Source: Dyella terrae (lineage in GTDB: Bacteria; Pseudomonadota; Gammaproteobacteria; Xanthomonadales; Rhodanobacteraceae). Taken from it: a stretch of DNA of 64,000 bases. The DNA lies in NCBI RefSeq assembly GCF_004322705.1, contig NZ_SIZZ01000001.1:62001-126000 (forward strand), in the 5' to 3' direction. A model generated the notes under the pieces. It did not search any database. It was given only the letters and a program-made list of their open reading frames with translations, and was not told where the DNA came from. Position numbers and translations under genes: made by a program. Positions 27,840 to 42,840 of the stretch are shown piece by piece; position 1 is the first letter of the stretch, and the number at the start of each line of letters is the position of its first letter.

Positions 27840-30266
27840 TCAGTGGCGCGCCGGTTCCAGCGTCATCACGTGTTGATCCGGACCGGGGAGCAGCGGGGTT
27901 GGGCGACCATTGACCCAGTCTTCGTGGCCCGCGCCGTAATAAGGCGATAGCGGATTGTCACTCTGGCCGCCGGGCATGTGCAGGATGCTCTGTGCTTCAT
28001 GGCCGGGCATCACGTCCATGCGTTCGGAGGCACCGAAACCCGGTTTGTCGACGCGCGGCATGTCCTGGTCACCCGGGATCGGTTCGTCAGGCATGTCGAG
28101 CACCCGCGCGAGCAGGCCGGGCAGGGCGCCTGAAAGTGGGTGGCGAATGCCCGTTGTATTCACCTCGCCCCAGGTCCGCGCGGCGAGGCCGCCGGGTTCC
28201 TTGCCCAGCTCCTGCGCGACCTGGCGCGCGGCATCGACCAGCAGGGCGTTCCAGTCGGCATAGCGGGCGTCCAGCAGATGCATCGGTCGATCGCGCACCA
28301 ACGTCCACACGGCAGACTCGGAGCTGTTCATGGCCGGCCACTGGAAGTCTTTGTGCGTCACGCGCACCTGTGCAACGAACGGCGCTAATACGGCGGCAGT
28401 GACCTTCTTGCGGAAGGCGCGGACGAGGCGGTAGTCAACGCTGTCGATGGCCGCGCGGTTGCGCCAGGCATCGGTGAGTTGTCGCAGTTCGACCAGCGCC
28501 GGATCGCGCGTGCCGGCCAGCGTGTCCTGCAGCAGGCGCTGCCAGCGACCCAGGAAAAGGGCGCGATTGTCGAGCTGGATATCAAGGAGGTTTCCTGGCC
28601 CGAAACTATTGCGCGTGCGCAGGCCATCGCGGATCTGTTGCGCGCGTGCACCCAGATCGAATCCGCCGTTGCCAAGAAGCGCGAGCTCAGCCCCATCGAC
28701 CGTGCGGTTGTTTGCGGTCCACAGTCGACCGTCGCCCGGATTTTCGATGCGCGGGTACTGATCGGGTGTCGCCCAGCCGATCCAGCCTTGGCCAGCTTGG
28801 GACCAGTCCGCGGGCAACTGCGGATCGAAACCGGAGCGCAAGGGGATGCTGTTGCCGGTGACGGTCCAGCCAATGTGGCCGGCGATGTCGGCGGCGAGCA
28901 GGTTCTGCGGCGGCATGCCCATCTGCGGCGCAAGATCGAGAGCACCGGAGACGTCGCGTGCGTGCTCAAGCTTCATCACGCCAAGGTTGTATGCACGGGG
29001 CGAATCAGCGATCCAGGACAGGGCCAGCGGCGTGCCGTCGACATCGGCGCCCATGATCGGACCCCAGCGGGTGGTTTCCACTTTCAGCACGCGCGCCGGC
29101 CGGTCTTTGATGGCGATGACTTCGTCGTGGCTTTCCATCGTTGCCCAGCCTTCGGGCACCTTGTACTTGCCGGGATCGTTCGGGTCGCGCAGCACGCGCA
29201 CCCAGTCCAGCCAGTCGCCGTAGCTGTTGGTGAATCCCCAGGCCACCTGGCCATTGGAGCCGACCACCAGCGCCGGCGTGCCGGGCAGCGTAACGCCGTT
29301 GGCGTCGCGCTGGTTGTTCGGCGCAGTGGGGTCTTCATAGCGCAGGCGCGTGCGGAACCAGATGTTCGGCACGCGCAGGCTCAGGTGCATGTCGTTGGCG
29401 AGGATGGCCGCGCCTGATTCGGTCAGGTTGCCGGCGACGGCGAAGTTGTTGCTGCCCGGGCGCGCTTCTTCGAGGGCCGGGAGGATGGCGAGTGCCAGTG
29501 CACTGGCGCTTTCCGGTTCACTCGGGGCGCTCGGATGTTCGCGCAGGTCGAGTACGTCCTGCGAAGGCGTGACCGACGGTCGCGAGAGATCGCCCTTCAG
29601 GGGGGCCTCCCAGTCGGGGTCCGGGGATAGCAGGAAGTCAGCCACCTGGCGCGGCAGGACGGAGCGCAGCTGGCTGATGGCCAGTTCGCGCTGGTTCTGG
29701 CCGTCGCCGTTGAGATCCAGATACATCGCAGCGATCACGAGGAAGGTGTCTTCCGGTTTCCACGGGCGTGGCTGCGTATGGAGCAGGAAGTATTCCCAGG
29801 GTTTGGCGTGCAGATCCGCCAGCCCCTGGTTGACGCCCTCGGCATAGCGTTCAAGCAAGCGCTTGTCTTCCACCGAGAGCTGCGCAAAGGCGGCTTCCGC
29901 GGTTGCGCGCATGCGGTGGCGGCGATGGTTGATGTCGACATCCAGCGCCTTGGGACCCACCAGCTCCGACAGTTCGCCCGCTGGCAGACGGCGCATCAGG
30001 TCCATGCCGAAGAAACGTTCCTGCGCATGGACATAGCCCAACGCATAGCTGAGATCGTCGCGGTTCTTGCCCTGGAGGGTGACGGTGCCGAGCGCATCGC
30101 GCGACACGCTGACGCTGTCGCTCAGACCCTTGGCCGTGACCGTGCCATCAAGCTTTGCGCGACTACCGGCGACCAGGTACCAGACCGCCCCGAAGGCGAC
30201 GAGCAGAAGGATCAACACGGTTGACAACAGATAGCGCAGCCAGCGTATGCGACGGGGCGTGGTCAT
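27840..30266 (-). CDS. penicillin acylase-family N-terminal nucleophile amidase
   Basis: The product, about 808 residues, has an N-terminal membrane anchor or signal at about 12-34, then a family S45 Ntn-hydrolase. The precursor cleavage site RPGSNNFAVAG places the nucleophile serine near residue 272, preceded by the alpha chain and followed by the beta chain with NDMHLSLRVPNIWFR and GWTVTGNSIPLR. Family members cleave penicillins, acyl-homoserine lactones or other N-acyl amides. The substrate cannot be told from sequence. ATG at 30266 is preferred to the preceding TTG. Expected location is the periplasm. Confidence 0.9.
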   Translation of the reverse strand: MTTPRRIRWLRYLLSTVLILLLVAFGAVWYLVAGSRAKLDGTVTAKGLSDSVSVSRDALGTVTLQGKNRDDLSYALGYVHAQERFFGMDLMRRLPAGELSELVGPKALDVDINHRRHRMRATAEAAFAQLSVEDKRLLERYAEGVNQGLADLHAKPWEYFLLHTQPRPWKPEDTFLVIAAMYLDLNGDGQNQRELAISQLRSVLPRQVADFLLSPDPDWEAPLKGDLSRPSVTPSQDVLDLREHPSAPSEPESASALALAILPALEEARPGSNNFAVAGNLTESGAAILANDMHLSLRVPNIWFRTRLRYEDPTAPNNQRDANGVTLPGTPALVVGSNGQVAWGFTNSYGDWLDWVRVLRDPNDPGKYKVPEGWATMESHDEVIAIKDRPARVLKVETTRWGPIMGADVDGTPLALSWIADSPRAYNLGVMKLEHARDVSGALDLAPQMGMPPQNLLAADIAGHIGWTVTGNSIPLRSGFDPQLPADWSQAGQGWIGWATPDQYPRIENPGDGRLWTANNRTVDGAELALLGNGGFDLGARAQQIRDGLRTRNSFGPGNLLDIQLDNRALFLGRWQRLLQDTLAGTRDPALVELRQLTDAWRNRAAIDSVDYRLVRAFRKKVTAAVLAPFVAQVRVTHKDFQWPAMNSSESAVWTLVRDRPMHLLDARYADWNALLVDAARQVAQELGKEPGGLAARTWGEVNTTGIRHPLSGALPGLLARVLDMPDEPIPGDQDMPRVDKPGFGASERMDVMPGHEAQSILHMPGGQSDNPLSPYYGAGHEDWVNGRPTPLLPGPDQHVMTLEPARH

Positions 30267-30352
30267 CAACCGTAGGCCTCTGGCGTAGGAAAGGCCCCAG
30301 TGTAGCGGAGGCGGCAGTCACGTCGCCGTTACGGCCGTCGCCAAAGTGGCGG

Positions 30353-31171
30353 TCAGGGGCGGCTTTGGGTGAAAACCGCGAACATGCCGGCGTAGGGTTT
30401 GACCATGAAGGTCGGGGCGCCGGCATACCCCTGGCCGTCGACGTAGAACTGCGAAATCGTACCGTCCAGGTACAGCGCATCCTGGCAGTGCAGTTCGTCG
30501 CGGAACAGGCGTGCAAAGGTATGGAAATTGACCGGAGCCTCACTGACGGCGAAGACCACTTTGTGTGGCGTCACGGCACACACGCCGCTGCGCCATTTCA
30601 GGCTGGCGGAGTCATCGACGAAGGAGTCATTGAGCTTGCCGTCGATCACCAGCATGGGGCCCGACTGCGTGGCCCATTGGGCTGGCCTGGCATCAGCCTT
30701 GTAGTCGGTGCTGGTGCGCACGGCGGCGTGCCCGTCCGCGTAAACCGCGAAGACGCCGTTGGGCTGGATGGAGAAGTTGCCGGCGGCAGGGTTGCCGCGG
30801 AACAGGTTCAGCGGCACCAGGGTCTTGCCTTCCTCAACGTACAGGCCAAGTGGCGCGAACTGGCGATCATAGATGCCTGCATTGGCAGCAAACAGCAGCC
30901 GGCGATCGTGGGACAGGCCCCATTGGCGGAGCGTTTCGATGTCGTTGTAGGGCTGGCCGTCTTCGGGATCCTTCCAATGCAGCGACAGCGGCTCGCGCTT
31001 GAGGTCCACGCTTACCACGCGGAAGGTCTGGCCTTCGAACACGCGCTCGTCGCTGTCCACGGCCTGCGCCTGGCGCGAACACCCGGCCAGGGTGGTCAGC
31101 AAGGCGAGCAGAAGGGGCCAGCAGAGAGACAGTCCGCGCGAAAGCGGGCGAGGGAGCGCAGGAGCAGGCAT
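30353..31171 (-). CDS. phosphodiester glycosidase/NAGPA-domain lipoprotein
   Basis: The 272-residue protein has a lipoprotein signal ending LTTLAGC near residue 31. The mature part matches the NAGPA/DUF2233 fold, with FAANAGIYD, GLYVEEGKTLVPLN, NFSIQPNGVFAV, SGPMLVIDGKLN and ALYLDGTISQFYV. Members of this fold include the mammalian uncovering enzyme and bacterial phosphodiester glycosidases. The bacterial substrates are mostly unknown. It lies upstream of the acylase gene on the same strand with an 86-bp gap, and is divergent from the Nudix pair. Confidence 0.8.
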   Translation of the reverse strand: MPAPALPRPLSRGLSLCWPLLLALLTTLAGCSRQAQAVDSDERVFEGQTFRVVSVDLKREPLSLHWKDPEDGQPYNDIETLRQWGLSHDRRLLFAANAGIYDRQFAPLGLYVEEGKTLVPLNLFRGNPAAGNFSIQPNGVFAVYADGHAAVRTSTDYKADARPAQWATQSGPMLVIDGKLNDSFVDDSASLKWRSGVCAVTPHKVVFAVSEAPVNFHTFARLFRDELHCQDALYLDGTISQFYVDGQGYAGAPTFMVKPYAGMFAVFTQSRP

Positions 31172-31266
31172 CGCTAGATGGTCGCCGGGCTCAGGGCCGG
31201 GTGCAAGCCTGTCTGACGTGACGGTTCAGGGAGGGGCGATGCTCGGCTTTGGTATCCTTGCCGACC

Positions 31267-31755
31267 ATGCCCTATACCCCCATTACCGCCACCCTCGGTT
31301 ACGTGCTGTCGCCCGATCGCCAGCGCGTACTCATGATCCATCGCAACTCGCGTCCCGATGATCTGCACCTGGGCAAGTACAACGGCCTGGGCGGCAAGAT
31401 GGAGCCCGGCGAGGACATTGCCAGCTGCATGCAACGCGAAATCCTCGAGGAAGCCGGCATCACCTGCGAGTCGATGCAGCTGCGCGGTACGCTCAACTGG
31501 CCCGGTTTCGGCAAGCATGGCGAGGACTGGCTGGGTTTCATCTTCATCATCGATCGCTACAGCGGCACGCCGATGGAGTCCAACCACGAAGGCACGCTGG
31601 AATGGGTGGATGTCTCGCGTCTGATGGAGCTACCCATGTGGGAGGGTGATCGCCATTTCCTTCCGCTCGTGTTCGACGGCGATCCGCGCCCGTTCCACGG
31701 CGTGATGCCGTACAAGGATGGGCGCATGCAGTCGTGGTCGTTTACCCGCCTGTGA
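31267..31755 (+). CDS. Nudix hydrolase (MutT/8-oxo-dGTPase type)
   Basis: The 162-residue protein has a complete Nudix box, GGKMEPGEDIASCMQREI followed by LEEAGI, so it should hydrolyse a nucleoside diphosphate derivative with Mg2+. HLGKYNGLGGKMEPGED and the C-terminal PMWEGDRHFLPLVFDGDPR segment resemble the MTH1/MutT subgroup that sanitises oxidised nucleotides. ATG at 31267 gives the usual N terminus. The stop codon overlaps the start of a second Nudix gene. Confidence 0.88.
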   Translation: MPYTPITATLGYVLSPDRQRVLMIHRNSRPDDLHLGKYNGLGGKMEPGEDIASCMQREILEEAGITCESMQLRGTLNWPGFGKHGEDWLGFIFIIDRYSGTPMESNHEGTLEWVDVSRLMELPMWEGDRHFLPLVFDGDPRPFHGVMPYKDGRMQSWSFTRL

Positions 31756-32150
31756 CCGATCGCACGATCCATATCGTCGCTGCGATGATCCGTGACGAGC
31801 GCGGGCATGTGCTGCTCGTGCGCAAGCGTGGTGCGCAGGTTTACCAGCAGCCCGGGGGCAAGCGGGATCCGGGCGATCGCGATGATCTGCACACGCTCCG
31901 GCGGGAGCTGCACGAGGAACTGGGTTGCACGATGGATGAATCCAGCGCGATCTGCCTGGGAACGTTCAGCGCACCCGCAGCCAATGAGCCGGGATGGACG
32001 GTGTCGGCACACGTCTACGAAGTGCGTGCCGAAGGCCCCTTCGTCGTGCAAGCGGAAATCGAGAGCCTGGTCTGGGTCGATCCGGCGGCTCCGGGCGATA
32101 CGCCGATCGCCCGGTTGAGTCGCGAACAGTTACTGCCGCTCATGCACTAA
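31752..32150 (+). CDS. Nudix hydrolase with atypical Nudix box
   Basis: The 132-residue protein has the Nudix fold with HVLLVRKRGAQVYQQPGGKRDPGDRDD, shown here in part, and RRELHEELG. The box has one extra residue and Asp/Arg where the first conserved glutamate normally stands, so activity or substrate may differ from the first Nudix protein. The GTG at 31752 overlaps the upstream stop codon as GTGA, indicating coupled translation; the frame is open 18 bases further to another GTG. It converges on the condensing enzyme gene. Confidence 0.8.
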   Translation: MTDRTIHIVAAMIRDERGHVLLVRKRGAQVYQQPGGKRDPGDRDDLHTLRRELHEELGCTMDESSAICLGTFSAPAANEPGWTVSAHVYEVRAEGPFVVQAEIESLVWVDPAAPGDTPIARLSREQLLPLMH

Positions 32151-32151
32151 C

Positions 32152-32178
32152 CCTCCTGGCGGGAGGAGGGCCAGGAGG
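32152..32178. terminator. hairpin between convergent Nudix and condensing-enzyme genes
   Basis: CCTCCTGGC (32152-32160) and GCCAGGAGG (32170-32178) form a 9-bp stem with a 9-base loop between two convergent stop codons (32150 and 32184). There is no long T run. A shared bidirectional 3' end is the simplest reading. Confidence 0.55.
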
Positions 32179-32183
32179 TGTCA

Positions 32184-33395
32184 TCAGAACTTGCGCAGCG
32201 CGACCACGGCATTCAGGCCGCCAAACGCAAACGAGTTGCTGATCGCTGCATCCACCTTCACACGGCGCGGCTCGTTCGGGACATAGTCGAGATCGCAGGC
32301 CGGATCGGGGCCGAGATATCCCAGCGTCGGCGGCACGATGCCTTCGCGCATGGCGCCAAGCACGGCGATCAGCTCCAGTGCACCGGCCGCGCCCAGCGCA
32401 TGGCCGTGCATCGGCTTGGTGGAGGAGATCACCAGCTCACGTGCATGCGCACCGAACACGCGATGGATCGTGCGTGTTTCGGTGCTGTCGTTTGCGACGG
32501 TGCCCGTGCCGTGCGCGTTAATGTAGTCGACGTCTTCCGGTGCCATGCGTGCGTCGCGCAGCGCGGCGGTAACGGCTGCCGAGGCGCCGATTTCAGAAGG
32601 CGCCGCGATGTCGCCCGCGTCCGAACTCATGCCGGTGCCGGCCAGTTCGGCGAGGATGGTGGCGCCGCGCGCCTGTGCGTGCTCCAGCGCCTCCACCACG
32701 AACATGCCGGCGCCTTCGCCAAGCACGATGCCGCGACGCCCGCTGCTGAAGGGGCGGCAGGTGTCCGGTGCCAGGACGCGCATCGCTTCCCACGAGCGCA
32801 GCGTGCCAAGGGTGATGCAGGCCTCGGTGCCGCCCACCACGGCGGCATCGACCAGGCCGCTGCGAATCATCATCGCGGCCTGGGCGAAGGCATGGTTGGA
32901 GGACGAACAGGCGCTGGCGAGGGCGAAGGCCGGCCCGGTGATGCCGTGGACCATGCTGATCTGGCTGGCCGGGGCGTTCATCATCATGCGGATGATGCCC
33001 AGCGGGTGGAATCGTCCGGCATGTTCGCCGTAGAGCTTTTCGTACTGCTCGTCGCGGGTGGTCTCGCCACCGACGCCGGTGCCCACGACCACGGCTGTGC
33101 GAGCGGCGGTTTCACCTTCGAACGTGATGCCGGATTGTTCGATGGCTTCGCGCGCTGCGACCAGCGCGTACTGGCTGACCACGTCCAGCTGGTTCAGTCG
33201 CGACTCGTCGAAATGCTGGGTCGGATCAAAATCCACGACTTCCGCCGCAATACCGCCGTTGCGCAGCTGCCCGGGCAGGATGTGGTGGATCGGGCCGATG
33301 CCGCTGCGGCCTTCGGCCATACCCTTCCAGGTAGAGGCCGCATCGTGGCCGAGCGCGCTGATGGCGCCCATGCCGGTAATGACGAGTCGACGCAT
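32184..33395 (-). CDS. beta-ketoacyl-ACP synthase II-like condensing enzyme
   Basis: The 403-residue thiolase-fold enzyme carries the full Cys-His-His triad of chain-elongating condensing enzymes: Cys163 in ASACSSSNHA, His295 in NAHGTGT and His332 in TKPMHGHALGAAG. It should condense malonyl-ACP with an acyl chain. ATG at 33395 (MRRLVITGMGAISALG) gives the family start; the longer frame runs back through the ACP gene. The ACP gene lies 4 bases upstream. The pairing with a dedicated ACP next to acyltransferase and aminotransferase genes suggests specialised lipid synthesis rather than housekeeping FabF. Confidence 0.9.
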   Translation of the reverse strand: MRRLVITGMGAISALGHDAASTWKGMAEGRSGIGPIHHILPGQLRNGGIAAEVVDFDPTQHFDESRLNQLDVVSQYALVAAREAIEQSGITFEGETAARTAVVVGTGVGGETTRDEQYEKLYGEHAGRFHPLGIIRMMMNAPASQISMVHGITGPAFALASACSSSNHAFAQAAMMIRSGLVDAAVVGGTEACITLGTLRSWEAMRVLAPDTCRPFSSGRRGIVLGEGAGMFVVEALEHAQARGATILAELAGTGMSSDAGDIAAPSEIGASAAVTAALRDARMAPEDVDYINAHGTGTVANDSTETRTIHRVFGAHARELVISSTKPMHGHALGAAGALELIAVLGAMREGIVPPTLGYLGPDPACDLDYVPNEPRRVKVDAAISNSFAFGGLNAVVALRKF

Positions 33396-33399
33396 GAAT

Positions 33400-33660
33400 T
33401 CAGCCGGTAGTGTTCTTTGCCGCGAGCTGGCGCTCGATGGCCTTGATGAGATCGCCGATGGTGCCGTTTTCAAAGTCGGCATCTTCATTCGGCAGCTGGA
33501 TATCGAAATGTTCTTCCAGGTCGAACACGACTTCGATGGCGTCAAGCGAGGCAACACCGAGGTCCTTGAGAGTGGACTCAGGCGTGATGGTGGCGATGTC
33601 GATCTTCGCCTGCTTGGCGATGATGTCGAAGGTGGCCTGCTGTACCTGTTCGTTGCTCAT
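33400..33660 (-). CDS. dedicated acyl carrier protein
   Basis: This 86-residue acidic helical protein resembles AcpP, with ESTLKDLGVASLDAIEVVFD and LEEHFDIQL. Ser38 aligns with the 4'-phosphopantetheine site. The usual DSL triplet reads ASL, so the conserved aspartate is lost. ATG at 33660 is preferred to the longer frame to 33690. It is followed after 4 bases by the condensing enzyme and is divergent from the acyltransferase gene. It probably carries the acyl chain for this cluster and not for general fatty acid synthesis. Confidence 0.88.
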   Translation of the reverse strand: MSNEQVQQATFDIIAKQAKIDIATITPESTLKDLGVASLDAIEVVFDLEEHFDIQLPNEDADFENGTIGDLIKAIERQLAAKNTTG

Positions 33661-33848
33661 GCTGGTTCCCGGTGGGTGACGCCAGGGCATCTGGCTGGGC
33701 CGGCCGCGTGGCCGAATGGAGCAAAGCCTGACGAAGTGCGGGGGCGTTGTCCAGAAAGCCTGGTGCGTCGGAGCGCATCCTGACCGGGGAGCCTTTCACC
33801 AACCTTATTCGACCGCGAAAGGTGGAAGTGGCCCGGAGGGTCGTATCC

Positions 33849-34952
33849 TTGGCCGACGGGCGCGTTCGCGCTGGATGGAATCACTGCGTGCGGTATTTGA
33901 ATCAGCTCGAGCCCGATGCGCTCGTCGCCGGCTTTGTCGAGCACCCTCCCGTGGGGTTCGGCGTGCGGGAGGCCGCGCAGACGCCGGCGTTCGTGGCGCC
34001 GTTCGACCTGCTGACAACGGCTGAGCCCGCGGTCCGCCAGAAGGTGACGGGTGCGCCCGGCTATCGCTGGTGGGGGCGCCTGCTGCGCTGGCGTACGGCC
34101 TTCGTCGGCACCACGGTGTCGGAGTACGCCCTGTTTCCAGCCGATGCCGATGCCACCGCGCTTCCGGGGCGCCTGGCCCAGGCACTGGGGCGCGAACAGC
34201 GCATGTTGATCGTCAAGGATATTCCGCAGGACTCGCCCCTGCTTTCGCCGGCCGAACGGTCCTGGTCGACGCGCTTTGCCGATGCCTGTCAGGAAGCGGG
34301 GTACGTACTGCTGGAAGGGCAGGCCCTGGCTTATGTGCCGATCGATTTCGCCAGCGAAGATGAATACCTGGCCCGGCTTTCCTCCGGTCGTCGCAAGGAT
34401 ATTCGCCGCAAGCTGCGCAAGCGCGACGATGTCACGGTGGAGACGGTCCACTGCGGTGATCCGCGTTTCGCCGACGACGCGGTCATCGATGCGTACTACG
34501 CGCTCTACGAAAACGTCTACGCGCAGAGCGAGATCCATTTCGACAAGCTCAGTCGCGAATTCTTTGTCAGGATCCTTCGCGACGGGAGCCATGGCGGCGT
34601 GGTGTTCGTATACCGCGTCGACAGCAAGATGATCGGCTGGAACCTGTGTTTCGTGGTCGATGGAAAACTGATCGACAAATACGTTGGCTTCGCTTACCCG
34701 CAGGCTCGCGAGCAGAACCTGTACTTCACCAGCTGGTTCCGCAATCTTGAATACGCGCGCGAGCGCGGCTTGACGCACTACGTCGCCGGCTGGACCGATC
34801 CGCAGGTCAAGTCGTACCTGGGTGCGAAATTCACCTTGACCCGCCACGCCATTTATCTGCGCAACCCCTTGCTGCGTGCGGTAGCGCGGCGACTGGGCCA
34901 CCTGTTCGAAAGCGACAGCCAATGGGGGACGAACGTCGATGATCAAGCGTAA
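33849..34952 (+). CDS. FemAB/GNAT-like acyltransferase
   Basis: The protein, about 367 residues, resembles the peptidogalycan/FemAB-like and Acetyltransf_6 groups of the GNAT superfamily, with LSSGRRKDIRRKLRKRDD, the IDAYYALYENVYAQSEI helix and a C-terminal acyl-CoA fold (KMIGWNLCFVVDGKLIDKYV, YFTSWFRNLEYARERGL). It should acylate an amine. No ATG is in frame. TTG at 33849 is preferred for its GGAGG 9 bases upstream, while the frame stays open to 33747. The end overlaps the arginase-like gene by 14 bases. It is divergent from the ACP gene. Confidence 0.75.
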   Translation: MADGRVRAGWNHCVRYLNQLEPDALVAGFVEHPPVGFGVREAAQTPAFVAPFDLLTTAEPAVRQKVTGAPGYRWWGRLLRWRTAFVGTTVSEYALFPADADATALPGRLAQALGREQRMLIVKDIPQDSPLLSPAERSWSTRFADACQEAGYVLLEGQALAYVPIDFASEDEYLARLSSGRRKDIRRKLRKRDDVTVETVHCGDPRFADDAVIDAYYALYENVYAQSEIHFDKLSREFFVRILRDGSHGGVVFVYRVDSKMIGWNLCFVVDGKLIDKYVGFAYPQAREQNLYFTSWFRNLEYARERGLTHYVAGWTDPQVKSYLGAKFTLTRHAIYLRNPLLRAVARRLGHLFESDSQWGTNVDDQA

Positions 34953-35814
34953 TCCCCTGGTTCTGGATTTCGACGGTTCGGTCGGCGACATTCCCGGCGC
35001 CACCGTCCTGCCCCTGTCGGACTGGCAGGAAGACATCCGGTTCGGCTGCACGCTGCGCACGTTCGCGAGGCTGGAGCGCCATCTCGATGCGTCGATCGAG
35101 GACGATTACGGCACCGTGCTGATGGGCTCGGGCGACTACCACCATCTCACCTGGCCGCTGGTGAAGCGGCAGCGCCTGCGCGGGCCGTTCCAGCTGGTGG
35201 TGTTCGACAATCACCCCGACAACATGCGGTTCCCCTTGGGTATCCATTGCGGATCCTGGGTGCGCAAGGTGGCCTTGCTGCCTTACGTGACGCATGTGCA
35301 CGTCGTGGGTATCACTTCAGGCGACATCGGGGCGGCGCATGCGTGGGAGAACTACCTGCGACCCTTGCGCGCCGGCAAGCTCAGCTACTGGTCGATGGAT
35401 GTCGATGTGGGCTGGGCCCGCAAGCTCGGGCTTGCCCATGCCTTCAGGCGCTTCGACGATCCTGACTCGCTTACCCGTGCCATGGTCGACCAGCTCGAGC
35501 TGGCACCGCAGCCGACCTACCTGTCGATCGACAAGGACGCGTTCAGCGTAACGACCGCCCGCACGAACTGGGACCAGGGGCGTATCGAGGAGCGTCACGG
35601 CATGGCGATCATCGCCGCCCTGCGCGGACAGATCATCGCCAGCGACATCAATGGTGAAGTGTCGGCCTATCACTATCGCACCTGGTGGAAGCGCCTGCTC
35701 AGCGGCATGGACGGGCAGGAACCGGTGCCGCAGGCTGAGCTGGATGCGTGGCAGGCGCAACAGCGTGCCTTGAACACTCGGCTGCTCGCTGCCATTGCGC
35801 AAAGCAGCGTCTGA
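34939..35814 (+). CDS. arginase/deacetylase-fold protein
   Basis: The 291-residue protein shows the metal-binding pattern of the ureohydrolase (arginase) fold in the right order: GSGDYHH (residues 63-69), VVFDNHPDN (D90, H92, D94 as DxHxD) and LSIDKDAF (D198, D200 as SxDxD). A second SxDxD-like stretch, WSMDVDVG, lies at 151-158. It could hydrolyse a guanidino, ureido or amide bond with a two-metal centre. The rest does not look like classical arginase or agmatinase. It overlaps the acyltransferase gene by 14 bases, so the two are co-expressed. The specific reaction is unknown. Confidence 0.65.
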   Translation: MIKRNPLVLDFDGSVGDIPGATVLPLSDWQEDIRFGCTLRTFARLERHLDASIEDDYGTVLMGSGDYHHLTWPLVKRQRLRGPFQLVVFDNHPDNMRFPLGIHCGSWVRKVALLPYVTHVHVVGITSGDIGAAHAWENYLRPLRAGKLSYWSMDVDVGWARKLGLAHAFRRFDDPDSLTRAMVDQLELAPQPTYLSIDKDAFSVTTARTNWDQGRIEERHGMAIIAALRGQIIASDINGEVSAYHYRTWWKRLLSGMDGQEPVPQAELDAWQAQQRALNTRLLAAIAQSSV

Positions 35815-35820
35815 GCGCGG

Positions 35821-37026
35821 TCAGGCGTCGCGCAGAACGCGCTGCAAGGTGGCGAGGATGTGGTCAAACTCCTCGTCTGTCAGCCAGGGCGAGTTAGTAA
35901 TCGTCAGCGAGCGCGCAGCAAAGTCGCGGGCCTGAGGGAGTGCCGCCGACGGAACGATGTCGCGCAGATAGCCATAGTCTGGAAGGGCATGGATGAAGAG
36001 GCGGCTGACACCGAGGCCTGCGGTCCACAAATCCCTGAGCGCCGCGTCGCGCTTCTCCTGGCTGGGCATCAGCAACATCAGGAACGGCCAGACACCTTCG
36101 TTACCACGCGCGTCGCTGAAAACCGTCAGGCCGGGCAGGGGGCGCAAGGACGCAAGTCGACGCCAGGCTTGCTGGCGCGTCGTCTCCATGAACGGAGACA
36201 GGCGCGCGAGGGCATGCGCGCCGACGGATTGCCGCCAGCGGCCCAGGGGGTGCATGGGAATATCGATATCGAAATCGTCACCGACAGCCGCGACCGGATC
36301 GCCGGCGGCAAGCGCCTTGCGCAAGGGGCGTCCGTAGAACCACGACAGCAGCGACGGGCGATAGGCGAGCGTGTAGCCGAAGAGTTCCAGCGCGCGTTGC
36401 AGCGTCCAGCGCGCGCTCGGCCGGGCCAGCTTGCGGCTGTTTTCAGCGAAGGCCCGGCGTAGCGTCGCGTCCCGCGTCACCAGGATGCCGCCTTCGAAGG
36501 TGGTCAGGCCCTTGCCGACCGCGAGGCTGAAAAAGCCAGCATCGCCGCGAAGGCCGACGCTCTGGCCGAATTGCCTGGCGCCCAGTGCCTGCGCGGCATC
36601 TTCCAGGACATAGGCGCCGCAGGCGCGGGCGACATGCAGTGCCGCATCGACATCGGCGAGGCGGCCGCCCAGGTGCGTCGGCACGATCGCCAGGGTCTGG
36701 GCGCCGGCGAGCGAGGCGATCTGCTGGGCGTCCATATCGAAATGATCGGGGGCCAGGTCACATAAGCGAATCGTGAGGCCGGCGCGATGGATGGCCAGCG
36801 CCACCAACGGACACGTCCATGCCGGCACGATGACTTCATCGCGATCCGGGCGCAGTTGGTGCATGGCCTGCAGGGCGATCACCATCGCCGACGTCCCGGA
36901 GCACTCGAGCTGCACGCTCTCCACGCCAAGCCAAGTCGCCAGTGCGCGGTCGAAACCGCTCGCGCCGGGAAGCCAGTCACTCAGGCGCAGCGGCAGTCCG
37001 GCAGTGGGCGGCAGCTCGCGTGACAT
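35821..37026 (-). CDS. DegT/DnrJ/EryC1/StrS-family aminotransferase
   Basis: The 401-residue PLP enzyme has ECSGTSAMVIAL (phosphate site), VPAWTCPLVALAI, LEDAAQALGA with Asp143 for the pyridine nitrogen, and FSLAVGKGLTTFEGG with Lys172 as the Schiff-base lysine. Family members aminate keto-sugars and related ketones, often for surface polysaccharides or lipid modification. It is the last gene of a tight four-gene unit, 4 bases after a small transporter, and converges on the arginase-like gene with a 6-base gap. No sugar-nucleotide genes are adjacent, so a non-sugar ketone substrate is possible. Confidence 0.88.
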   Translation of the reverse strand: MSRELPPTAGLPLRLSDWLPGASGFDRALATWLGVESVQLECSGTSAMVIALQAMHQLRPDRDEVIVPAWTCPLVALAIHRAGLTIRLCDLAPDHFDMDAQQIASLAGAQTLAIVPTHLGGRLADVDAALHVARACGAYVLEDAAQALGARQFGQSVGLRGDAGFFSLAVGKGLTTFEGGILVTRDATLRRAFAENSRKLARPSARWTLQRALELFGYTLAYRPSLLSWFYGRPLRKALAAGDPVAAVGDDFDIDIPMHPLGRWRQSVGAHALARLSPFMETTRQQAWRRLASLRPLPGLTVFSDARGNEGVWPFLMLLMPSQEKRDAALRDLWTAGLGVSRLFIHALPDYGYLRDIVPSAALPQARDFAARSLTITNSPWLTDEEFDHILATLQRVLRDA

Positions 37027-37030
37027 GGCG

Positions 37031-37462
37031 TCAGTCTCCCGCGGCTACACCCAGGGCGCCCTTGGCTTCGGTCGGGGCGTCGTGCTCCGGATGCGAGCCG
37101 CTCTCGGCGAAGGCCAGGCAGACGATGCCGGCGACGATCACCAGCGCACCGGCCACGCGCGGCCAGGTCAGCGGTTCGTTGAACAGCCATACGGAGAACA
37201 ACATGACGCTGACCACCTCCAGGTGCGTGACCGCGAATGCGGGCCCGATCGGTGCATGCTTGAGTAGCGTCATCCATGTGAAAAAGTTGCCGATATAGCC
37301 AATCACCGCGATGTAGATCCACGGATGGCCGAACACGCGCACGATCCAGGCCCAGTTGGCCTCCGGCGGAAAGGCGTGGTTGCCGGCGTATTTGAAGGCC
37401 AGCTGCACGGCGGTGTCGAAGGCGACGAGGATCAGGAAGCCGAAGAAGTAAAAGCGCTTCAT
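37031..37462 (-). CDS. small EamA/SMR-type transporter subunit B
   Basis: The 143-residue protein has four predicted helices (about 4-24, 42-62, 70-90, 97-117) and a hydrophilic tail. FDTAVQLAFKYAG in helix 1 matches the homologous LDTIGQLAFKAA of the gene just upstream, so the two are a paralogous pair that may work as a heterodimer, as ArnE/ArnF do in flipping a lipid-linked sugar. ATG at 37462 is preferred to the frame end at 37492. Spacing is 4 bases on both sides. The substrate is probably the product of the surrounding pathway. Confidence 0.8.
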   Translation of the reverse strand: MKRFYFFGFLILVAFDTAVQLAFKYAGNHAFPPEANWAWIVRVFGHPWIYIAVIGYIGNFFTWMTLLKHAPIGPAFAVTHLEVVSVMLFSVWLFNEPLTWPRVAGALVIVAGIVCLAFAESGSHPEHDAPTEAKGALGVAAGD

Positions 37463-37466
37463 GCGA

Positions 37467-37832
37467 TCAGCCTCCTCCTGCCACGCCAACAATCGCCACG
37501 CCCAGCGTCACCAGCAGGATGCCTGTGACACGCATGGGCGTGAGCTTTTCGCGGAACAGGATGCGTCCGCCGATCATGATCACCACGATGTTGATCGAGC
37601 CCAGCAGCACGCCTTCGGACAGATCGACCAACGAAAGGAACGCGATCCACACCAGAAATTCGGCGGCATACGAGATGACGCCGACCCACAGCCACGGACG
37701 CGAGGCCATGTATTTCCAGCGTGCGATACCGTCACCTGCCTCGGGGTCGCCCGCCGCAGCCTTGAAGGCCAGCTGGCCGATGGTGTCGAGGGTGACGTTG
37801 AGCAACCAGAGGAAAACCGCGAGCGGACCCAC
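37467..37832 (-). CDS. small EamA/SMR-type transporter subunit A
   Basis: This is a 121-residue, four-helix membrane protein (helices at about 3-22, 48-68, 74-94, 99-118) of the small multidrug-resistance/EamA class. GTG at 37832 has AGGAGG 6 bases upstream, overlapping the hydrolase stop codon region, which decides the start. It pairs with the similar protein encoded directly downstream. Such pairs export or flip hydrophobic or lipid-linked compounds across the inner membrane. Confidence 0.8.
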   Translation of the reverse strand: MGPLAVFLWLLNVTLDTIGQLAFKAAAGDPEAGDGIARWKYMASRPWLWVGVISYAAEFLVWIAFLSLVDLSEGVLLGSINIVVIMIGGRILFREKLTPMRVTGILLVTLGVAIVGVAGGG

Positions 37833-37841
37833 CGAGCCTCC

Positions 37842-38681
37842 TCAGGCCGCTTCGCGCGCAGCAGGTTCGCAGGCCTGGGCGATCCGGCCGAAGAAATCGG
37901 CGGAGCGATCGATCAGGGTGCGGCGTTCACGGTCGATGGTGATCATGTGGTAGCTGTCTTCGAGCAACAGCATTTCTACGGGACCGGACACCGTGCTTTC
38001 GACCAGGCGCGCGTTGGCCATGCTGGCGATATCGTCTTCGGTGGCATGCGCGATCAGGCAGGGCGCGGTGACCTTGGGCAGGTCGCGGCGAACCACGGCA
38101 GCCATCTTGTACATCTCCGCCAGCGACGGCCACGGATTGCCGGGCAGGCCAGCTGCGGCGCTATCGCCGCCAAGCATGAGCGAGCTGATCTGCGCGCGGA
38201 TGCGCTCGTCGCGCAGGCCATAAGGCTCTGCCTCGTGGACCATCCATTTTTTGCCGATGCCCAGCTTGTCGATCAGCGGCAGCAGGAATGAGAACTTGCC
38301 GTACCAGGGCGTGGCCCAGCCGTCGTACTTGAACGTGGCGCCGTAAACGCCCACGCCCTGCACCCAGTCCGGGTGATCGGCGGCCAGCTTCAGCGCCAGC
38401 ACCGCACCCATCGAGAGACCGGCAACGAACAGCTGGTCGACTTCCTTGCGGAACTCGCGCGCAGCGGCCTCGACGCTGGCGTACCAGTCCTGCCAGTGGG
38501 TGGCGAGCAGGTCGGCGGCGTCGCCGCAGTGGCCGGCCAGCTGCATGCCGTAGACGCTGAATCCTGCGCGGTTGAGACCCTTGCCGACCAGGCGCATTTC
38601 GGCAGGCGTGCCGGTGAGGCCGTGGATCAGCAGGACGCCGCTACGGCCGCCTTCGAAGCGGAACTCGACGTTCTGGATCAC
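37842..38681 (-). CDS. alpha/beta hydrolase (carboxylesterase/monoacylglycerol lipase type)
   Basis: The 279-residue cytosolic hydrolase has the oxyanion segment LLIHGLTGTPAEMR, the nucleophile elbow AGLSMGAV with Ser90, an acid in HATEDDIAS and the histidine in EDSYHMITIDRER. This pattern matches Est30-type carboxylesterases that cut short or medium acyl esters. The frame opens with GTG at 38681. It is first in the unit with the two small transporters and the aminotransferase, 9 bases before the next start. It might release or proofread the acyl product. Confidence 0.85.
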   Translation of the reverse strand: MIQNVEFRFEGGRSGVLLIHGLTGTPAEMRLVGKGLNRAGFSVYGMQLAGHCGDAADLLATHWQDWYASVEAAAREFRKEVDQLFVAGLSMGAVLALKLAADHPDWVQGVGVYGATFKYDGWATPWYGKFSFLLPLIDKLGIGKKWMVHEAEPYGLRDERIRAQISSLMLGGDSAAAGLPGNPWPSLAEMYKMAAVVRRDLPKVTAPCLIAHATEDDIASMANARLVESTVSGPVEMLLLEDSYHMITIDRERRTLIDRSADFFGRIAQACEPAAREAA

Positions 38682-38812
38682 AATGGGGCACTCACGCAGG
38701 ATTTGGCGGCAGACAATACGACAGAAAACATGGGGTCACGCGCATCTTGAGACAGTGACCCAAGTCTGGCGGGCGTCGCTTTCCAAAAACTTTCGGTGGG
38801 CTGAAGCTGGCT

Positions 38813-39295
38813 TCAGCGGCCGTGGAACTGGGTCGTCCCGATCGAAATGCCCACGCCGCCGGTGGGATGGGTGCAGCTTCCGAACCGCTGGCTCAGGTTG
38901 ACCTCGCCCATGCCGTACGTGCCTGAGTTCCAATGGCTGCCGGACTGCACGCCCATGCCAACGCTGCCGTGGATCTGGGGCTGGTTGTAAGTGGCGTCAT
39001 CGCAACCCTGGCGCGCCGCTGCCTCGTAATCGGCGCGGGTGCGGCCGCTTGTGTCGCCGTAATAGACGCCCGGGGCCGGCCGGACGGGAGCGGCGGCCGC
39101 GGCACTGGGGCGGGTCGTCGTCGATGGGTTGGCCGGTTTCACATCGACCGCAGTAACGGCAGGGGCACTGGTACTCGTGGACGCCGGCACGCTGCCAGGC
39201 GGCAGTTTAAGGTTCAGTGGTGTCGTCGATTGCGCGTGGGTGCTCGCCATGACGAGAAGCAGGGCGGGAAAGGCGAGGCGTTGCAGGGTGTTCAT
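38813..39295 (-). CDS. exported protein of unknown function (160 aa)
   Basis: MNTLQRLAFPALLLVMASTHAQ is a clear signal peptide. The mature part has an Ala/Thr/Pro/Ser-rich linker (about 25-75), then a small domain with YYGDTSGRTRADYEAAARQGCDDA and a Gly-rich C terminus (GSVGMGVQSGSHWNSGTYGMG). Two cysteines (one in GCDDA, one in GSCTHP) could pair. ATG at 39295 is chosen as the signal-peptide start. I do not recognise a family. It is single, between the hydrolase gene and lplA. Confidence 0.7.
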   Translation of the reverse strand: MNTLQRLAFPALLLVMASTHAQSTTPLNLKLPPGSVPASTSTSAPAVTAVDVKPANPSTTTRPSAAAAAPVRPAPGVYYGDTSGRTRADYEAAARQGCDDATYNQPQIHGSVGMGVQSGSHWNSGTYGMGEVNLSQRFGSCTHPTGGVGISIGTTQFHGR

Positions 39296-39396
39296 GAAAA
39301 CTCCGGGGCAGCATGTCCGGAAACGGCTGGCGCCAGCGGACGTGCACAACGTGATGCTGGTTCGACGCAATGGCGCACTGCAAGTTCCCTGCGCGT

Positions 39397-40173
39397 TCAT
39401 GCGACTTCGCCCGTCCACGCGGCCGTAGCGAATTTTGCCCGTGCCAATTCACCGGCACGATCGAGTTCGGTAGAGCGCAGCGCATCGTCCTTCAGTCCAT
39501 AGCGGCGACGAAAGACGTCGATCATGCGCTGGATGATTGCATCGCGCGGAAGCCCGGTCTGGCTGCGCAAGGGATCAACGCGCTTGGCCGCGCTCGCGGT
39601 GCCCTTGTCCGAAAGCTTCTCGCGACCAATGCGCAGCACGTCTAGCATTTTCCCGGCATCGATGTCGTAAGCCATCGTCACATGATGCAGGACGGCATTG
39701 CCCCGTCGCGCTTGCGCCGCGCCGGCGATCTTGCCGCCGGCGGAGGTGATGTCGTTCAGCGGCTGATACCACGCGCGTATGCCCAGCTCACCCAGCGCGT
39801 CGATGACCCAGGCATCCATCAACTCATAGGATTGCTGGAATGACATCCCCTCGACCAGCGAAAGCGGTGCATAAATCGAATAGGTAATGGTGTTGCCCGG
39901 CTCGATGAACATGGCGCCGCCACCGCTGATGCGCCGCACGACGGTGATGCCGTGACGCTCGGCAGCGAGGCTGTCCACTTCATTGCGCAAGGATTGAAAT
40001 CGACCGATCACTACGGCTGACGTTGCCCATTCCCACACCCGGATCGTGGGTGGGCGCTGACCCGATGCGACCTCGTCGGTCAGCACTTCATCCAGTGCCA
40101 TGTGAAGCGATGGCGCTTGGGGTTCGGTGTGGATCAGGTGCCAGTCGTGATCGCTCCAGTGCGTGCGAATCAT
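39397..40173 (-). CDS. lplA: lipoate--protein ligase A, catalytic subunit
   Basis: The 258-residue protein is the catalytic domain of a BPL/LplA/LipB-fold ligase, with IRVWEWATSAVVIGRFQ, VVRRISGGGAMFIEPGNTI and the nucleophilic-lysine block ITSAGGKIAGAAQARRG. It should activate lipoate with ATP and attach it to E2 or H proteins. It lacks the C-terminal accessory domain found in E. coli LplA. That domain is encoded separately just upstream, with an ATGA overlap between the two genes. Confidence 0.88.
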   Translation of the reverse strand: MIRTHWSDHDWHLIHTEPQAPSLHMALDEVLTDEVASGQRPPTIRVWEWATSAVVIGRFQSLRNEVDSLAAERHGITVVRRISGGGAMFIEPGNTITYSIYAPLSLVEGMSFQQSYELMDAWVIDALGELGIRAWYQPLNDITSAGGKIAGAAQARRGNAVLHHVTMAYDIDAGKMLDVLRIGREKLSDKGTASAAKRVDPLRSQTGLPRDAIIQRMIDVFRRRYGLKDDALRSTELDRAGELARAKFATAAWTGEVA

Positions 40174-40460
40174 GCGGCGGCCTCCGGATGCAGGGCCCGT
40201 CGCACCGCGACCGCGATGGCCTCGGGCGAGATGCCGTACATCAGCACGTCGGCCGCCAGGGCTTGCTGGATCGTCATGGCCAATGCCTGTTCGCCCGCGC
40301 TCGCCGGTTGCCCTTCGAGCGCTGCATTGATGGCATCCAGGGCGGTGTCGGGCTCGAGGAAAAAGTCACCGCTCACCTGCACCTGCTGCAGGCGACCGAC
40401 GTGAACCTCAAGGTCCACCACCACCAATTTTCCGCCGGGCATTTTGTATTCGCCGTGCAT
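40170..40460 (-). CDS. lipoate ligase C-terminal domain protein (LplB-like)
   Basis: The 96-residue protein matches the small C-terminal accessory domain of lipoate ligases: YKMPGGKLVVVDLEVHVGRL, QVSGDFFLEPD and a helical tail. In Thermoplasma acidophilum the same split exists, and both LplA and LplB are needed for lipoyl-AMP formation. Its stop codon overlaps the lplA start as ATGA, so the two are made together. This is a family-based inference supported by the gene pair. Confidence 0.82.
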   Translation of the reverse strand: MHGEYKMPGGKLVVVDLEVHVGRLQQVQVSGDFFLEPDTALDAINAALEGQPASAGEQALAMTIQQALAADVLMYGISPEAIAVAVRRALHPEAAA

Positions 40461-40540
40461 CGCGGTGCCTCGAAGAGAGCTCCACGTATGATTTCACGGT
40501 TTGTGATTCGGGAGGTTATTCGCCGGTGAAACCGCATAAG

Positions 40541-40573
40541 GAAAGGGCGTGATCGCTTGTCGCAACCACGCCC
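40541..40573 (-). terminator. terminator after parC
   Basis: GGGCGTG (40545-40551) and CACGCCC (40567-40573) form a 7-bp stem with a 15-base loop. On the minus strand it is followed by TTTCCTT, a weak T tract. It lies about 30 bases after the parC stop codon and separates parC from the lipoate ligase pair. Confidence 0.5.
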
Positions 40574-40599
40574 CCGGGTTCACCGCTCGATGCGCGTTG

Positions 40600-42840
40600 T
40601 CACGCTGTCGTTTCGATCCGTTCAACGCGGCGCAGGCCACGCGGCAGCACCCCACCGCGCGTGGCGCGATTGCCCCCGAATTCAACCAGGTCGGACCAGC
40701 GCAGGGTCAGCTTGCGCTGGCCGGCATAGAGCGTCACTTCACCCTTGCCTTCGGTGACGACGGCGACGCCAGCGACGCGCTCATCGCCGGAGCCAAGCTT
40801 GGCCTTCGGAATTTCGATCAGCTTGTTGCCCTTGCCCTTGTCGAGTTCGGGCAATTCGGCGACCGAGAACATCAGCAGGTGGCCTTCCGTTGTGACGACC
40901 ACGATGCGGTCGCGTGCCGGATCGGCGCTGACCTGAGGCGTGAGCACGCGTGCACCGTCGGAGAGGCTGATGATCTGCTTGCCGGCCTTGTTGCGACCCG
41001 TCAGCGCTTCGAAGCGGGTGACGAAGCCGTAGCCGAAGTCGGTGGCGAGGATCAGGCGCGTGTCGTTGTCGCCGGCGGTCAGTGCATCGAAGCTGGCGCC
41101 GCTCGGCGGGCTGAAGCGACCGGTGAGCGGCTCGCCGTTGCCACGGGCCGACGGAAGCGTGTGTGCGGGCGTCGAGTAACTGCGGCCGGTCGAGTCGATG
41201 ACCGCGACCTGTTGCGTCGTACGCGCCTTGACCGCCGCGAGGAGGCTGTCGCCTTCGCGATAGTTGAGGCCTTCGGCATCGACGTCGTGGCCCTTGGCAG
41301 CACGGATCCAGCCCTTCTGGCTCAGCACCACGGTGACCGGCTCGCTGGCGACCAGCGCGCTTTCGTCGAGCGCCTGCGCGGCATCGCGCTGCACCAGCGG
41401 CGAGCGGCGATCGTCGCCGTACTTGGCGGCGTCGGCGCGCAGTTCTTCCTTGATCAGCCCCTTGAGCTTGGCCGGCGACTTGAGCAGGACATTGATGCGT
41501 GCGCGCTCTTCTTCCAGCTGATCGCGCTCGGCATTGATCTTCATCTCTTCCAGGCGAGCCAACTGGCGCAGCTTGGTTTCGAGGATGTAGTCAGTCTGCT
41601 CTTCGCTGAGCCTGAAGCGCGCCATCAGCACTTGCCTGGGCTCGTCTTCGGTACGGACGATGCGGATCACCTCATCGAGATTGAGGTAGGCAATGCGCAG
41701 ACCTTCCAACAGGTGCAGGCGACGTTCGACCTTGGCCAGACGATGTTCAAGGCGACGCGTGACCGTGGCGGTACGGAAGCTCAGCCACTCGGAGAGGATG
41801 CGCTTGAGGTCCTTGACCTGCGGGCGACCGTCCAGGCCGATCATGTTGAGGTTGACGCGGAAGCTCTTCTCGAGATCCGTCGTCGCGAACAGGTGCTGCA
41901 TCACTTCAGCCGCATCGACGCGGTTGGAACGCGGCACCACCACCAGGCGGATCGGGTTTTCGTGATCGGACTCGTCGCGCAGGTCTTCGACCATCGGCAG
42001 CTTCTTCGCGCGCATCTGCGCGGCGATCTGCTCGAGGATCTTCGACGGGCTTACCTGGTGCGGCAGCGCGGTGATGACGATGTTGCCGTCGTCGACGTGA
42101 TACACGGCGCGGGCACGCAGCGAACCATTGCCGGTCTGGTAGATCGCCAGCAGCTCCTTGCGTGGCGTGATGATTTCCGCTTCGGTCGGATAGTCCGGAC
42201 CCTGGATGTGTTCGCACAGGTCGGCGACGGTGGCATCCGGGTCGTCGAGGAGGCGAATGCAGGCACTGCTGACTTCGCGAAGATTGTGCGGCGGAATGTC
42301 GGTGGCCATGCCCACGGCAATGCCCATCGAACCATTGAGCAGCACATGCGGCACGCGCGCCGGCAGCCAGCTGGGTTCTTCCAGCGTGCCGTCGAAGTTG
42401 GCGACCCAGTCGACCGTGCCCTGGCCCAGCTCACCCAGCAGCGCTTCGGCGATAGGGCTGAGCTTGGACTCGGTGTAACGCATCGCCGCGAAGCTCTTGG
42501 GGTCGTCCGGCGAACCGAAGTTGCCCTGGCCATCGACCAGCGGATAGCGATACGAAAACGGCTGCGCCATCAGCACCATGGCCTCGTAGCACGAGGTATC
42601 GCCATGCGGATGGAATTTGCCGATCACGTCACCGATGGTGCGCGCGGACTTCTTGGGCTTGGACGTGGCAGCCAGCCCCAGCTCGCTCATCGCGTAGATG
42701 ATGCGGCGCTGGACGGGCTTGAGACCGTCGCCCACGAAGGGCAGGGCACGGTCCAGCACGACGTACATGGAGTAGTCGAGGTACGCCCGTTCGGCGTACT
42801 CCTTGAGCGGGATCTGTTCGTAATTGGCTTGCAGATTCAT
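40600..42840 (-). CDS. parC: DNA topoisomerase IV subunit A
   Basis: ParC with ParE decatenates daughter chromosomes. The 746-residue protein has the breakage-reunion domain with active Tyr122 in AAMRYTES, and six C-terminal beta-propeller blades. [18 protein letters not shown] and [15 protein letters not shown] identify it. In the quinolone-resistance region, Thr82 stands where E. coli has Ser80, while Glu86 (E. coli Glu84) is kept. Length and start are normal. parE is not adjacent. Confidence 0.97.

What the first reader, a model, noticed from the sequence alone, without database searches (positions are those of the whole stretch)
32184..38681. Possible undescribed pathway: condensing enzyme, private ACP, acyltransferase, arginase-fold protein, aminotransferase, paired small exporters and esterase
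Eight genes in three tightly packed transcription units, back to back, form a closed set: carbon-chain building (beta-ketoacyl synthase with full C-H-H triad plus its own ACP), amine introduction (DegT PLP enzyme with Lys172), N-acylation (FemAB/GNAT-like), a two-metal hydrolase fold, an esterase and an ArnE/ArnF-like transporter pair. No sugar-nucleotide, NRPS or standard fatty acid genes are present. The parts fit an exported acylated amino lipid or signal. I do not recognise a described cluster with this composition. The product and pathway order are inference.
Basis: partly seen in the sequence, partly recalled or inferred. Interest (0 to 1): 0.78.

Follow-up and report, generated by a model that had tools for sequence, protein, structure and literature searches.

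The report
Undescribed envelope-lipid gene cluster in Dyella
Eight adjacent genes in a Dyella-like bacterium are the local half of a gene set that recurs in many soil and plant-associated bacteria and probably makes and exports an unusual amino-bearing lipid; the product is still unknown.

Summary
In detail: eight genes at 32184-38681 in three tight units, named catalytic residues intact. They are not chance neighbours. In 197 genomes of the window's family, ARG (arginase-fold) and FemAB genes co-occur in 132 and are adjacent in 131; DegT is present in 109 of 111 genomes with the window's ARG type and 0 of 25 with a diverged type. 12 of 20 ARG neighbourhoods hold all eight.

The set is not closed. 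In 5 of those 20, a class III PLP enzyme, HAD phosphatase, sensor kinase and MacB-like exporter lie in the same stretch; here they lie 1.6 Mb away. A related cluster occurs in Pseudomonas (49 of 49 ARG-selected full-length loci), Rhizobium/Agrobacterium and Roseomonas, without KS/ACP.

Best reading: a regulated envelope-lipid pathway. The class III enzyme and phosphatase make an amino alcohol, KS/ACP supply acyl chains, FemAB (fold nearest to aminoacyl-tRNA transferases) adds an amino acid that ARG trims, and an SMR pair flips the product. Conservation is shown; chemistry is inferred. My searches of an open-licence library found no description.

The parts
32184..33395 (-). FabF-like beta-ketoacyl-ACP synthase (KS), C163/H295/H332
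   Evidence: Pfam PF00109/PF02801; FabF equivalog 432.8 bits, below cut-off 493.75; residues; alignment A4
33400..33660 (-). acyl carrier protein, serine in ASLD
   Evidence: PF00550 1.9e-12; 4 bp from KS
33661..33887 (.). divergent intergenic region between KS/ACP and FemAB/ARG units (presumed promoters)
   Evidence: ORF layout; no sigma-70-like match found in 32000-39000
33888..34952 (+). FemAB-like dual-GNAT transferase (ORF opens at 33747)
   Evidence: PF04339 3.1e-12; model pLDDT 84.4; nearest folds Sba18/Sbb17, FemX, MprF; GTG at 33888 in frame
34939..35814 (+). arginase-fold protein (ARG), metal-ligand motifs kept
35821..37026 (-). DegT-family PLP aminotransferase, K172
   Evidence: PF01041 5.8e-47; K172 and D143 invariant in 16 sequences
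37031..37462 (-). small EamA/SMR transporter 1
   Evidence: PF00892 5.8e-12
37467..37832 (-). small EamA/SMR transporter 2
   Evidence: PF00892 2.5e-7
37842..38681 (-). alpha/beta hydrolase (Hydrolase_4), GLSMG nucleophile
   Evidence: PF12146 2.1e-21; motif

Best explanation
The locus is the Rhodanobacteraceae form of a conserved, two-component-linked pathway that builds and exports an amino-bearing envelope lipid. Shown: the gene set, its conservation, its split in this genome and its relatives in Pseudomonas, Rhizobiaceae and Roseomonas. Inferred: (1) the class III PLP enzyme and HAD phosphatase, both elsewhere in this genome, make a small amino alcohol, for which DHAP -> serinol phosphate -> serinol is the model chemistry; (2) KS and ACP supply a special acyl chain; other lineages use other acyl genes or none in the locus; (3) the FemAB-fold enzyme adds an aminoacyl group, probably from aminoacyl-tRNA; (4) the arginase-fold hydrolase acts on that group, for example arginyl to ornithyl; (5) DegT adds a further amine in lineages that carry it; (6) the SMR pair flips the lipid, the hydrolase trims or turns it over, and the two-component system sets expression.
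Against: No substrate, product or phenotype was tested. A shared fold does not show aminoacyl-tRNA use; I saw no tRNA synthetase among the annotated neighbours of four plasmid loci; Acetyltransf_6 also covers other donors (general knowledge). 9 of 141 FemAB genomes lack ARG, 4 of 136 ARG genomes lack FemAB at the cut-off used, and 9 of 118 DegT genomes lack the window's ARG type. G022 keeps KS/ACP/SMR/hydrolase without FemAB, ARG or DegT. G015 and G027 lack KS at 1e-100. 40 of 49 Pseudomonas loci have none of KS, ACP, desaturase or CFA synthase in the stretch, and 4 of 22 other loci have both KS and desaturase, so the acyl genes do not replace each other neatly. AT3 is on the same contig but over 1 Mb from ARG in G070 and in the window's own genome. 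The regulators' PmrA/PmrB scores are below NCBIfam cut-offs. The AT3 substrate is a guess from the phosphatase pairing.
Confidence: 0.38

Rival explanations
1. N-acyl amide pathway: FemAB transfers a fatty acyl group from the private ACP to an amine made by DegT or the class III enzyme; the SMR pair exports the acyl amide.
Against: FemAB occurs without KS/ACP in the stretch in 49 of 49 full Pseudomonas loci; the nearest folds are aminoacyl-tRNA-dependent; no detectable similarity to YghO, the E. coli relative of the ceramide N-acyltransferase; gives ARG no role.
Confidence: 0.27
2. Beta-amino fatty acid pathway: the KS extends a beta-ketoacyl-ACP and the class III PLP enzyme transaminates it, as GSAM-like domains do in mycosubtilin-type synthases (recalled, not looked up); FemAB then adds an amino acid.
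For: AT3 is replaced by a GSAM-like enzyme in 4 of 13 genomes tested; 21 of 21 KS genomes have one or the other.
Against: The HAD phosphatase stays beside the class III enzyme (8 of 8 AT3 loci), which this chemistry does not need; no KS/ACP in the Pseudomonas loci.
Confidence: 0.13
3. Arn-like surface decoration: DegT makes an amino sugar that the ArnE/ArnF-like SMR pair flips on undecaprenyl phosphate.
For: SMR proteins score to ArnE/ArnF models; Roseomonas has UppP beside DegT and two small transporters.
Against: Arn scores are below cut-offs (33.2 vs 99; ArnB 85.6 vs 631); no glycosyltransferase or sugar-nucleotide family among the eight; SMR pair present without DegT in Pseudomonas and G022.
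Confidence: 0.08
4. Amino-acid or polyamine metabolism with efflux: the arginase-fold and aminotransferase genes break down guanidino compounds or amines that the SMR pair expels; no lipid product.
For: Ureohydrolase fold; class III transaminase and SMR families often handle amines (general knowledge).
Against: KS/ACP, desaturase and CFA synthase genes in some of the loci; ARG scores 18.3 against an agmatinase cut-off of 174.3.
Confidence: 0.08

Closest known systems
MprF / aminoacyl-phosphatidylglycerol synthases and FemX
   Different: FemAB here has no fused membrane flippase domain (the matches to the soluble part span the model); identity is 9-16% in those alignments; a neighbouring SMR pair could flip instead; tRNA use untested.
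Arn (L-Ara4N) lipid A modification
   Same: DegT enzyme plus a pair of small EamA transporters.
   Different: Below ArnB/ArnE/ArnF cut-offs; no glycosyltransferase or sugar-nucleotide family among the eight.
Arginase/agmatinase superfamily (proclavaminate amidinohydrolase, arginase, agmatinase)
   Different: 10-19% identity in the listed alignments; own invariant motifs HCGSW and NWDQG; fails the agmatinase cut-off.
Bacterial sphingolipid (ceramide) cluster
   Same: Private ACP, PLP enzyme, N-transferase and a possible flippase gene (passages of PMC11324152 and PMC9386255).
   Different: No serine palmitoyltransferase among the eight; FemAB shows no detectable similarity to YghO.
Serinol formation by RtxA
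   Same: PLP transamination of DHAP, then dephosphorylation (passages of PMC3222319).
   Different: Not shown that AT3 or GSAM-like enzymes use DHAP; RtxA was not compared here.

Membership tests
Arginase family (PF00491) | Score above the curated cut-off | tested here: met
   27.9 vs 22 bits
Arginase family (PF00491) | Metal-ligand motifs GDH, DxHxD, DxD | tested here: met
   D66/H68, D90/H92/D94, D198/D200 invariant in 26 sequences, one of them partial; aligned to arginase 6vsu by HMM
Arginase family (PF00491) | Hydrolysis of a guanidino group | not testable with these tools
   Needs an enzyme assay
Agmatinase (TIGR01230) | Equivalog cut-off | tested here: not met
   18.3 vs 174.3 bits
FemAB_like (PF04339) | Score above the curated cut-off | tested here: met
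   46.7 vs 27 bits
FemX/MprF aminoacyl-tRNA transferases | Dual-GNAT fold | tested here: met
FemX/MprF aminoacyl-tRNA transferases | Use of aminoacyl-tRNA | not testable with these tools
   Needs an in vitro assay
Ceramide N-acyltransferase (CC_1154/YghO type) | Sequence homology | tested here: inconclusive
   hhalign probability 0.1% and no Pfam family for YghO; folds not compared
ArnE/ArnF flippase | Equivalog cut-off | tested here: not met
   SMR1 33.2 vs 99 (ArnF), 18.7 vs 92 (ArnE); SMR2 22.9 vs 99 and 21.6 vs 92
ArnB aminotransferase | Equivalog cut-off | tested here: not met
   85.6 vs 631
FabF (TIGR03150) | Equivalog cut-off | tested here: not met
   432.8 vs 493.75; the wider subfamily PRK07314 is met, 415.9 vs 387
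PmrAB two-component system | Equivalog cut-off for regulators of related loci | tested here: not met
   Agrobacterium RR 202.3 vs 330, HK 143.6 vs 314; L038 HK 139.1 vs 314; the window genome's own pair was only scanned with Pfam

The most novel reading that the evidence does not exclude
FemAB and ARG form a two-step, tRNA-dependent ornithinylation unit: FemAB transfers arginine from Arg-tRNA to an amino-alcohol lipid and the arginase-fold enzyme removes urea, leaving an ornithyl head group that a separate SMR pair flips. This would be a 'split MprF' with its own lipid, spread over alpha- and gammaproteobacteria and under two-component control.
Probability: 0.17. Interest if true: 0.86.

Novelty: new variant of a known kind. 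Interest (0 to 1): 0.6.

Why it matters
If the reading is right, many Pseudomonas, Rhizobium and Rhodanobacteraceae share an undescribed envelope-lipid pathway whose genes are annotated today as 'arginase', 'GNAT' or 'EamA'. Lipidomics of single-gene deletions in non-pathogenic strains would test it directly. Bacteria that carry KS/ACP or not, and AT3 or a GSAM-like enzyme, offer natural variants for assigning each step.

Tried and rejected
Ceramide-synthase analogy: FemAB was compared with E. coli BL21 YghO and no similarity was detected (to locate the gene; 78, 80 to test). Literature: searches returned no paper; 31 (3 papers, seen as a listing) and 90 (1 paper, passages read) describe other things; 70 and 97 were used for sphingolipid and serinol background. 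The library holds only open-licence PMC papers, so absence from print is not shown. Protein searches list only the best 120 of 2178 and of 3722 hits (the latter scored a capped candidate list), so taxonomic breadth is under-read. Promoter and terminator scans gave nothing beyond chance. No tandem repeats in 30000-41000. The conserved ORF 'f20' partly overlaps the ABC ATPase gene in antisense and has no Pfam family; I did not count it as a member. SMR, EamA and kinase hits by tblastn may include paralogues. The GSAM-like enzyme was sought in 13 of the 26 genomes only. The split of ARG genomes into window type (111) and diverged type (25) was made by me from the identities. My note lists L044 and L046 as holding both halves; one search shows that neither has AT3 in the stretch, and the counts here follow.

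Full report
WHAT IS THERE. The eight genes are real and packed as described: KS and ACP (-), FemAB and ARG (+, overlapping by 14 bp), and hydrolase-SMR2-SMR1-DegT (-, in that order of transcription). FemAB probably starts at GTG 33888, which is in frame: the L045 relative begins at the same RYLNQLEP sequence, and residues 1-46 of the longer ORF have low model confidence. KS has C163, H295 and H332; DegT has K172; the hydrolase has GLSMG.

IT IS CONSERVED. In 197 genomes of the window's family (its own included) ARG occurs in 136 at E 1e-3 and in 21 of 26 genera, FemAB in 141 at 1e-20 and DegT in 118 at 1e-80. Of 132 genomes with both ARG and FemAB, 131 have them within 2.5 kb; 4 ARG genomes lack FemAB and 9 FemAB genomes lack ARG. 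ARG comes in two types by identity: the window type, about 50% and more (111 genomes), and a diverged type, 31-38% (25 genomes). DegT is found in 109 of 111 and 0 of 25. The two exceptions are G006, where a DegT match is cut by a contig end, and G181, a fragmented assembly. Within genera g9 and g24, which hold both types, DegT is in 7 of 7 window-type and 0 of 22 diverged-type genomes (read; related genomes are not independent). DegT lies within 20 kb of ARG in 84 of 109. I fetched 20 ARG neighbourhoods of up to 19 kb from 20 genomes chosen to cover genera. All 20 have FemAB, 16 DegT (one cut), 16 SMR1, 16 SMR2, 16 the hydrolase, 13 KS and ACP, and 12 all eight, with gene order rearranged.

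IT IS NOT CLOSED. In 8 of these 20 stretches a class III aminotransferase (AT3) and an MtnX-like HAD phosphatase are present (L033, L034, L036, L037, L038, L039, L043, L047); in 8 an outer-membrane efflux protein, FtsX/MacB-like permease and ABC ATPase (L033, L034, L036, L039, L041, L043, L044, L046); in 8 a sensor kinase; AT3, HAD, permease, efflux protein and kinase together in 5 (L033, L034, L036, L039, L043) (families; counts). In the window's own genome these genes form a second locus at G000:C1 about 1.69 Mb, 1.6 Mb from the window, with a response regulator and a MipA gene (L077). AT3 is present in 19 of 26 tested genomes at 1e-60. Four of the other seven (G013, G045, G047, G083) carry a GSAM-like class III enzyme at 73-75% identity instead, while the 9 other genomes tested have only a HemL-like match at 41-45%. 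The remaining three (G009, G011, G012), which I had chosen for lacking ARG, also lack KS and DegT. So a class III PLP enzyme is present in 23 of 23 genomes that hold KS, ARG or DegT.

MODULES. G022 keeps hydrolase-SMR2-SMR1-ACP-KS at the same flanks but has no FemAB, ARG or DegT, and it has AT3. This suggests a core (class III enzyme, phosphatase, KS/ACP, SMR pair, hydrolase) and a decorating part (FemAB, ARG, DegT). Against strict pairing: of the 9 FemAB genomes without ARG, 8 are genus g25, and all 9 DegT genomes without window-type ARG are g25 (with the genus labels). G015 and G027 have ARG, DegT and AT3 but no KS at 1e-100.

BEYOND THE FAMILY. On plasmids the diverged ARG matches 47 records, mostly Rhizobium (16), Roseomonas (11) and Agrobacterium (10) (all rows). 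Three rhizobial loci read: response regulator, kinase, HAD phosphatase, class III enzyme, arginase, EamA, hydrolase, FemAB/GNAT, EamA, MipA; two of the three add a desaturase and a CFA synthase, and in one, A. fabrum pAt2788a, EptA and DgkA follow. One Roseomonas locus has UppP, DegT (52% to the window's), two EamA/SMR genes, a GSAM-like enzyme, phosphatase, ARG, hydrolase, GNAT and regulators. None of these four loci has a KS or ACP match. All 49 of these with full flanks hold ARG (by selection), FemAB, both SMRs, hydrolase, AT3, HAD, a kinase and a regulator; 43 have MipA, 9 a desaturase, none KS, ACP or DegT, and 40 have none of KS, ACP, desaturase and CFA synthase. Of the 22 other loci, many on short contigs, 4 hold both KS and desaturase, so these genes are not simple replacements. 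In a class-level sample of 369 genomes the window-type ARG matched 5: two of the window's family (its own genome among them), one of the same order, and two weak ones. Ten FemAB proteins of both types share 32 invariant positions.

MECHANISM, MARKED BY STATUS. Shown here: conservation, modularity, swaps and folds. Inferred: class III enzyme plus phosphatase make an amino alcohol (serinol formation is the nearest case I found; passages of PMC3222319); the acyl genes tailor a chain; FemAB adds an aminoacyl group that ARG trims; DegT adds an amine; the SMR pair flips. The envelope role rests on the regulators, MipA and one EptA/DgkA neighbour, and is weak.

COMPARISON AND VERDICT. The system resembles MprF and Arn in parts but fails the Arn and agmatinase cut-offs tested, and my searches found no description. 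I call it a new variant of the known kind 'envelope lipid modification system'. It is real and widespread, and its product is unknown.

Noticed in passing
window 27840-30269 (-), 30353-31171 (-): Penicillin-amidase family protein (PF01804) and phosphodiester-glycosidase (NAGPA) protein beside the cluster; both are syntenic in L031, L045 and L067.
   Followed up: partly
window 31249-31755 and 31734-32150 (+): Two adjacent Nudix hydrolase genes next to the KS gene.
   Followed up: no
window 38813-39418 (-): Small conserved protein with no Pfam family; it has matches in L031, L040, L045 and L067.
   Followed up: no
G013, G045, G047, G083: A GSAM-like class III enzyme is found in exactly the four ARG-bearing genomes of the 26-genome sample that lack AT3.
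   Followed up: partly
genus g25 genomes (e.g. G096, G107): DegT and a FemAB-like gene lie side by side but no ARG was found.
   Followed up: no
L040 9897-10772; L050 10118-11035: A CAAX-protease-like gene and a PF00756 esterase gene lie between ARG and DegT in two genera.
   Followed up: no
G151, G031 (ARG); G016 (FemAB); G105, G139 (DegT): Single in-frame stop codons inside the match; pseudogene or assembly error not distinguished.
   Followed up: no
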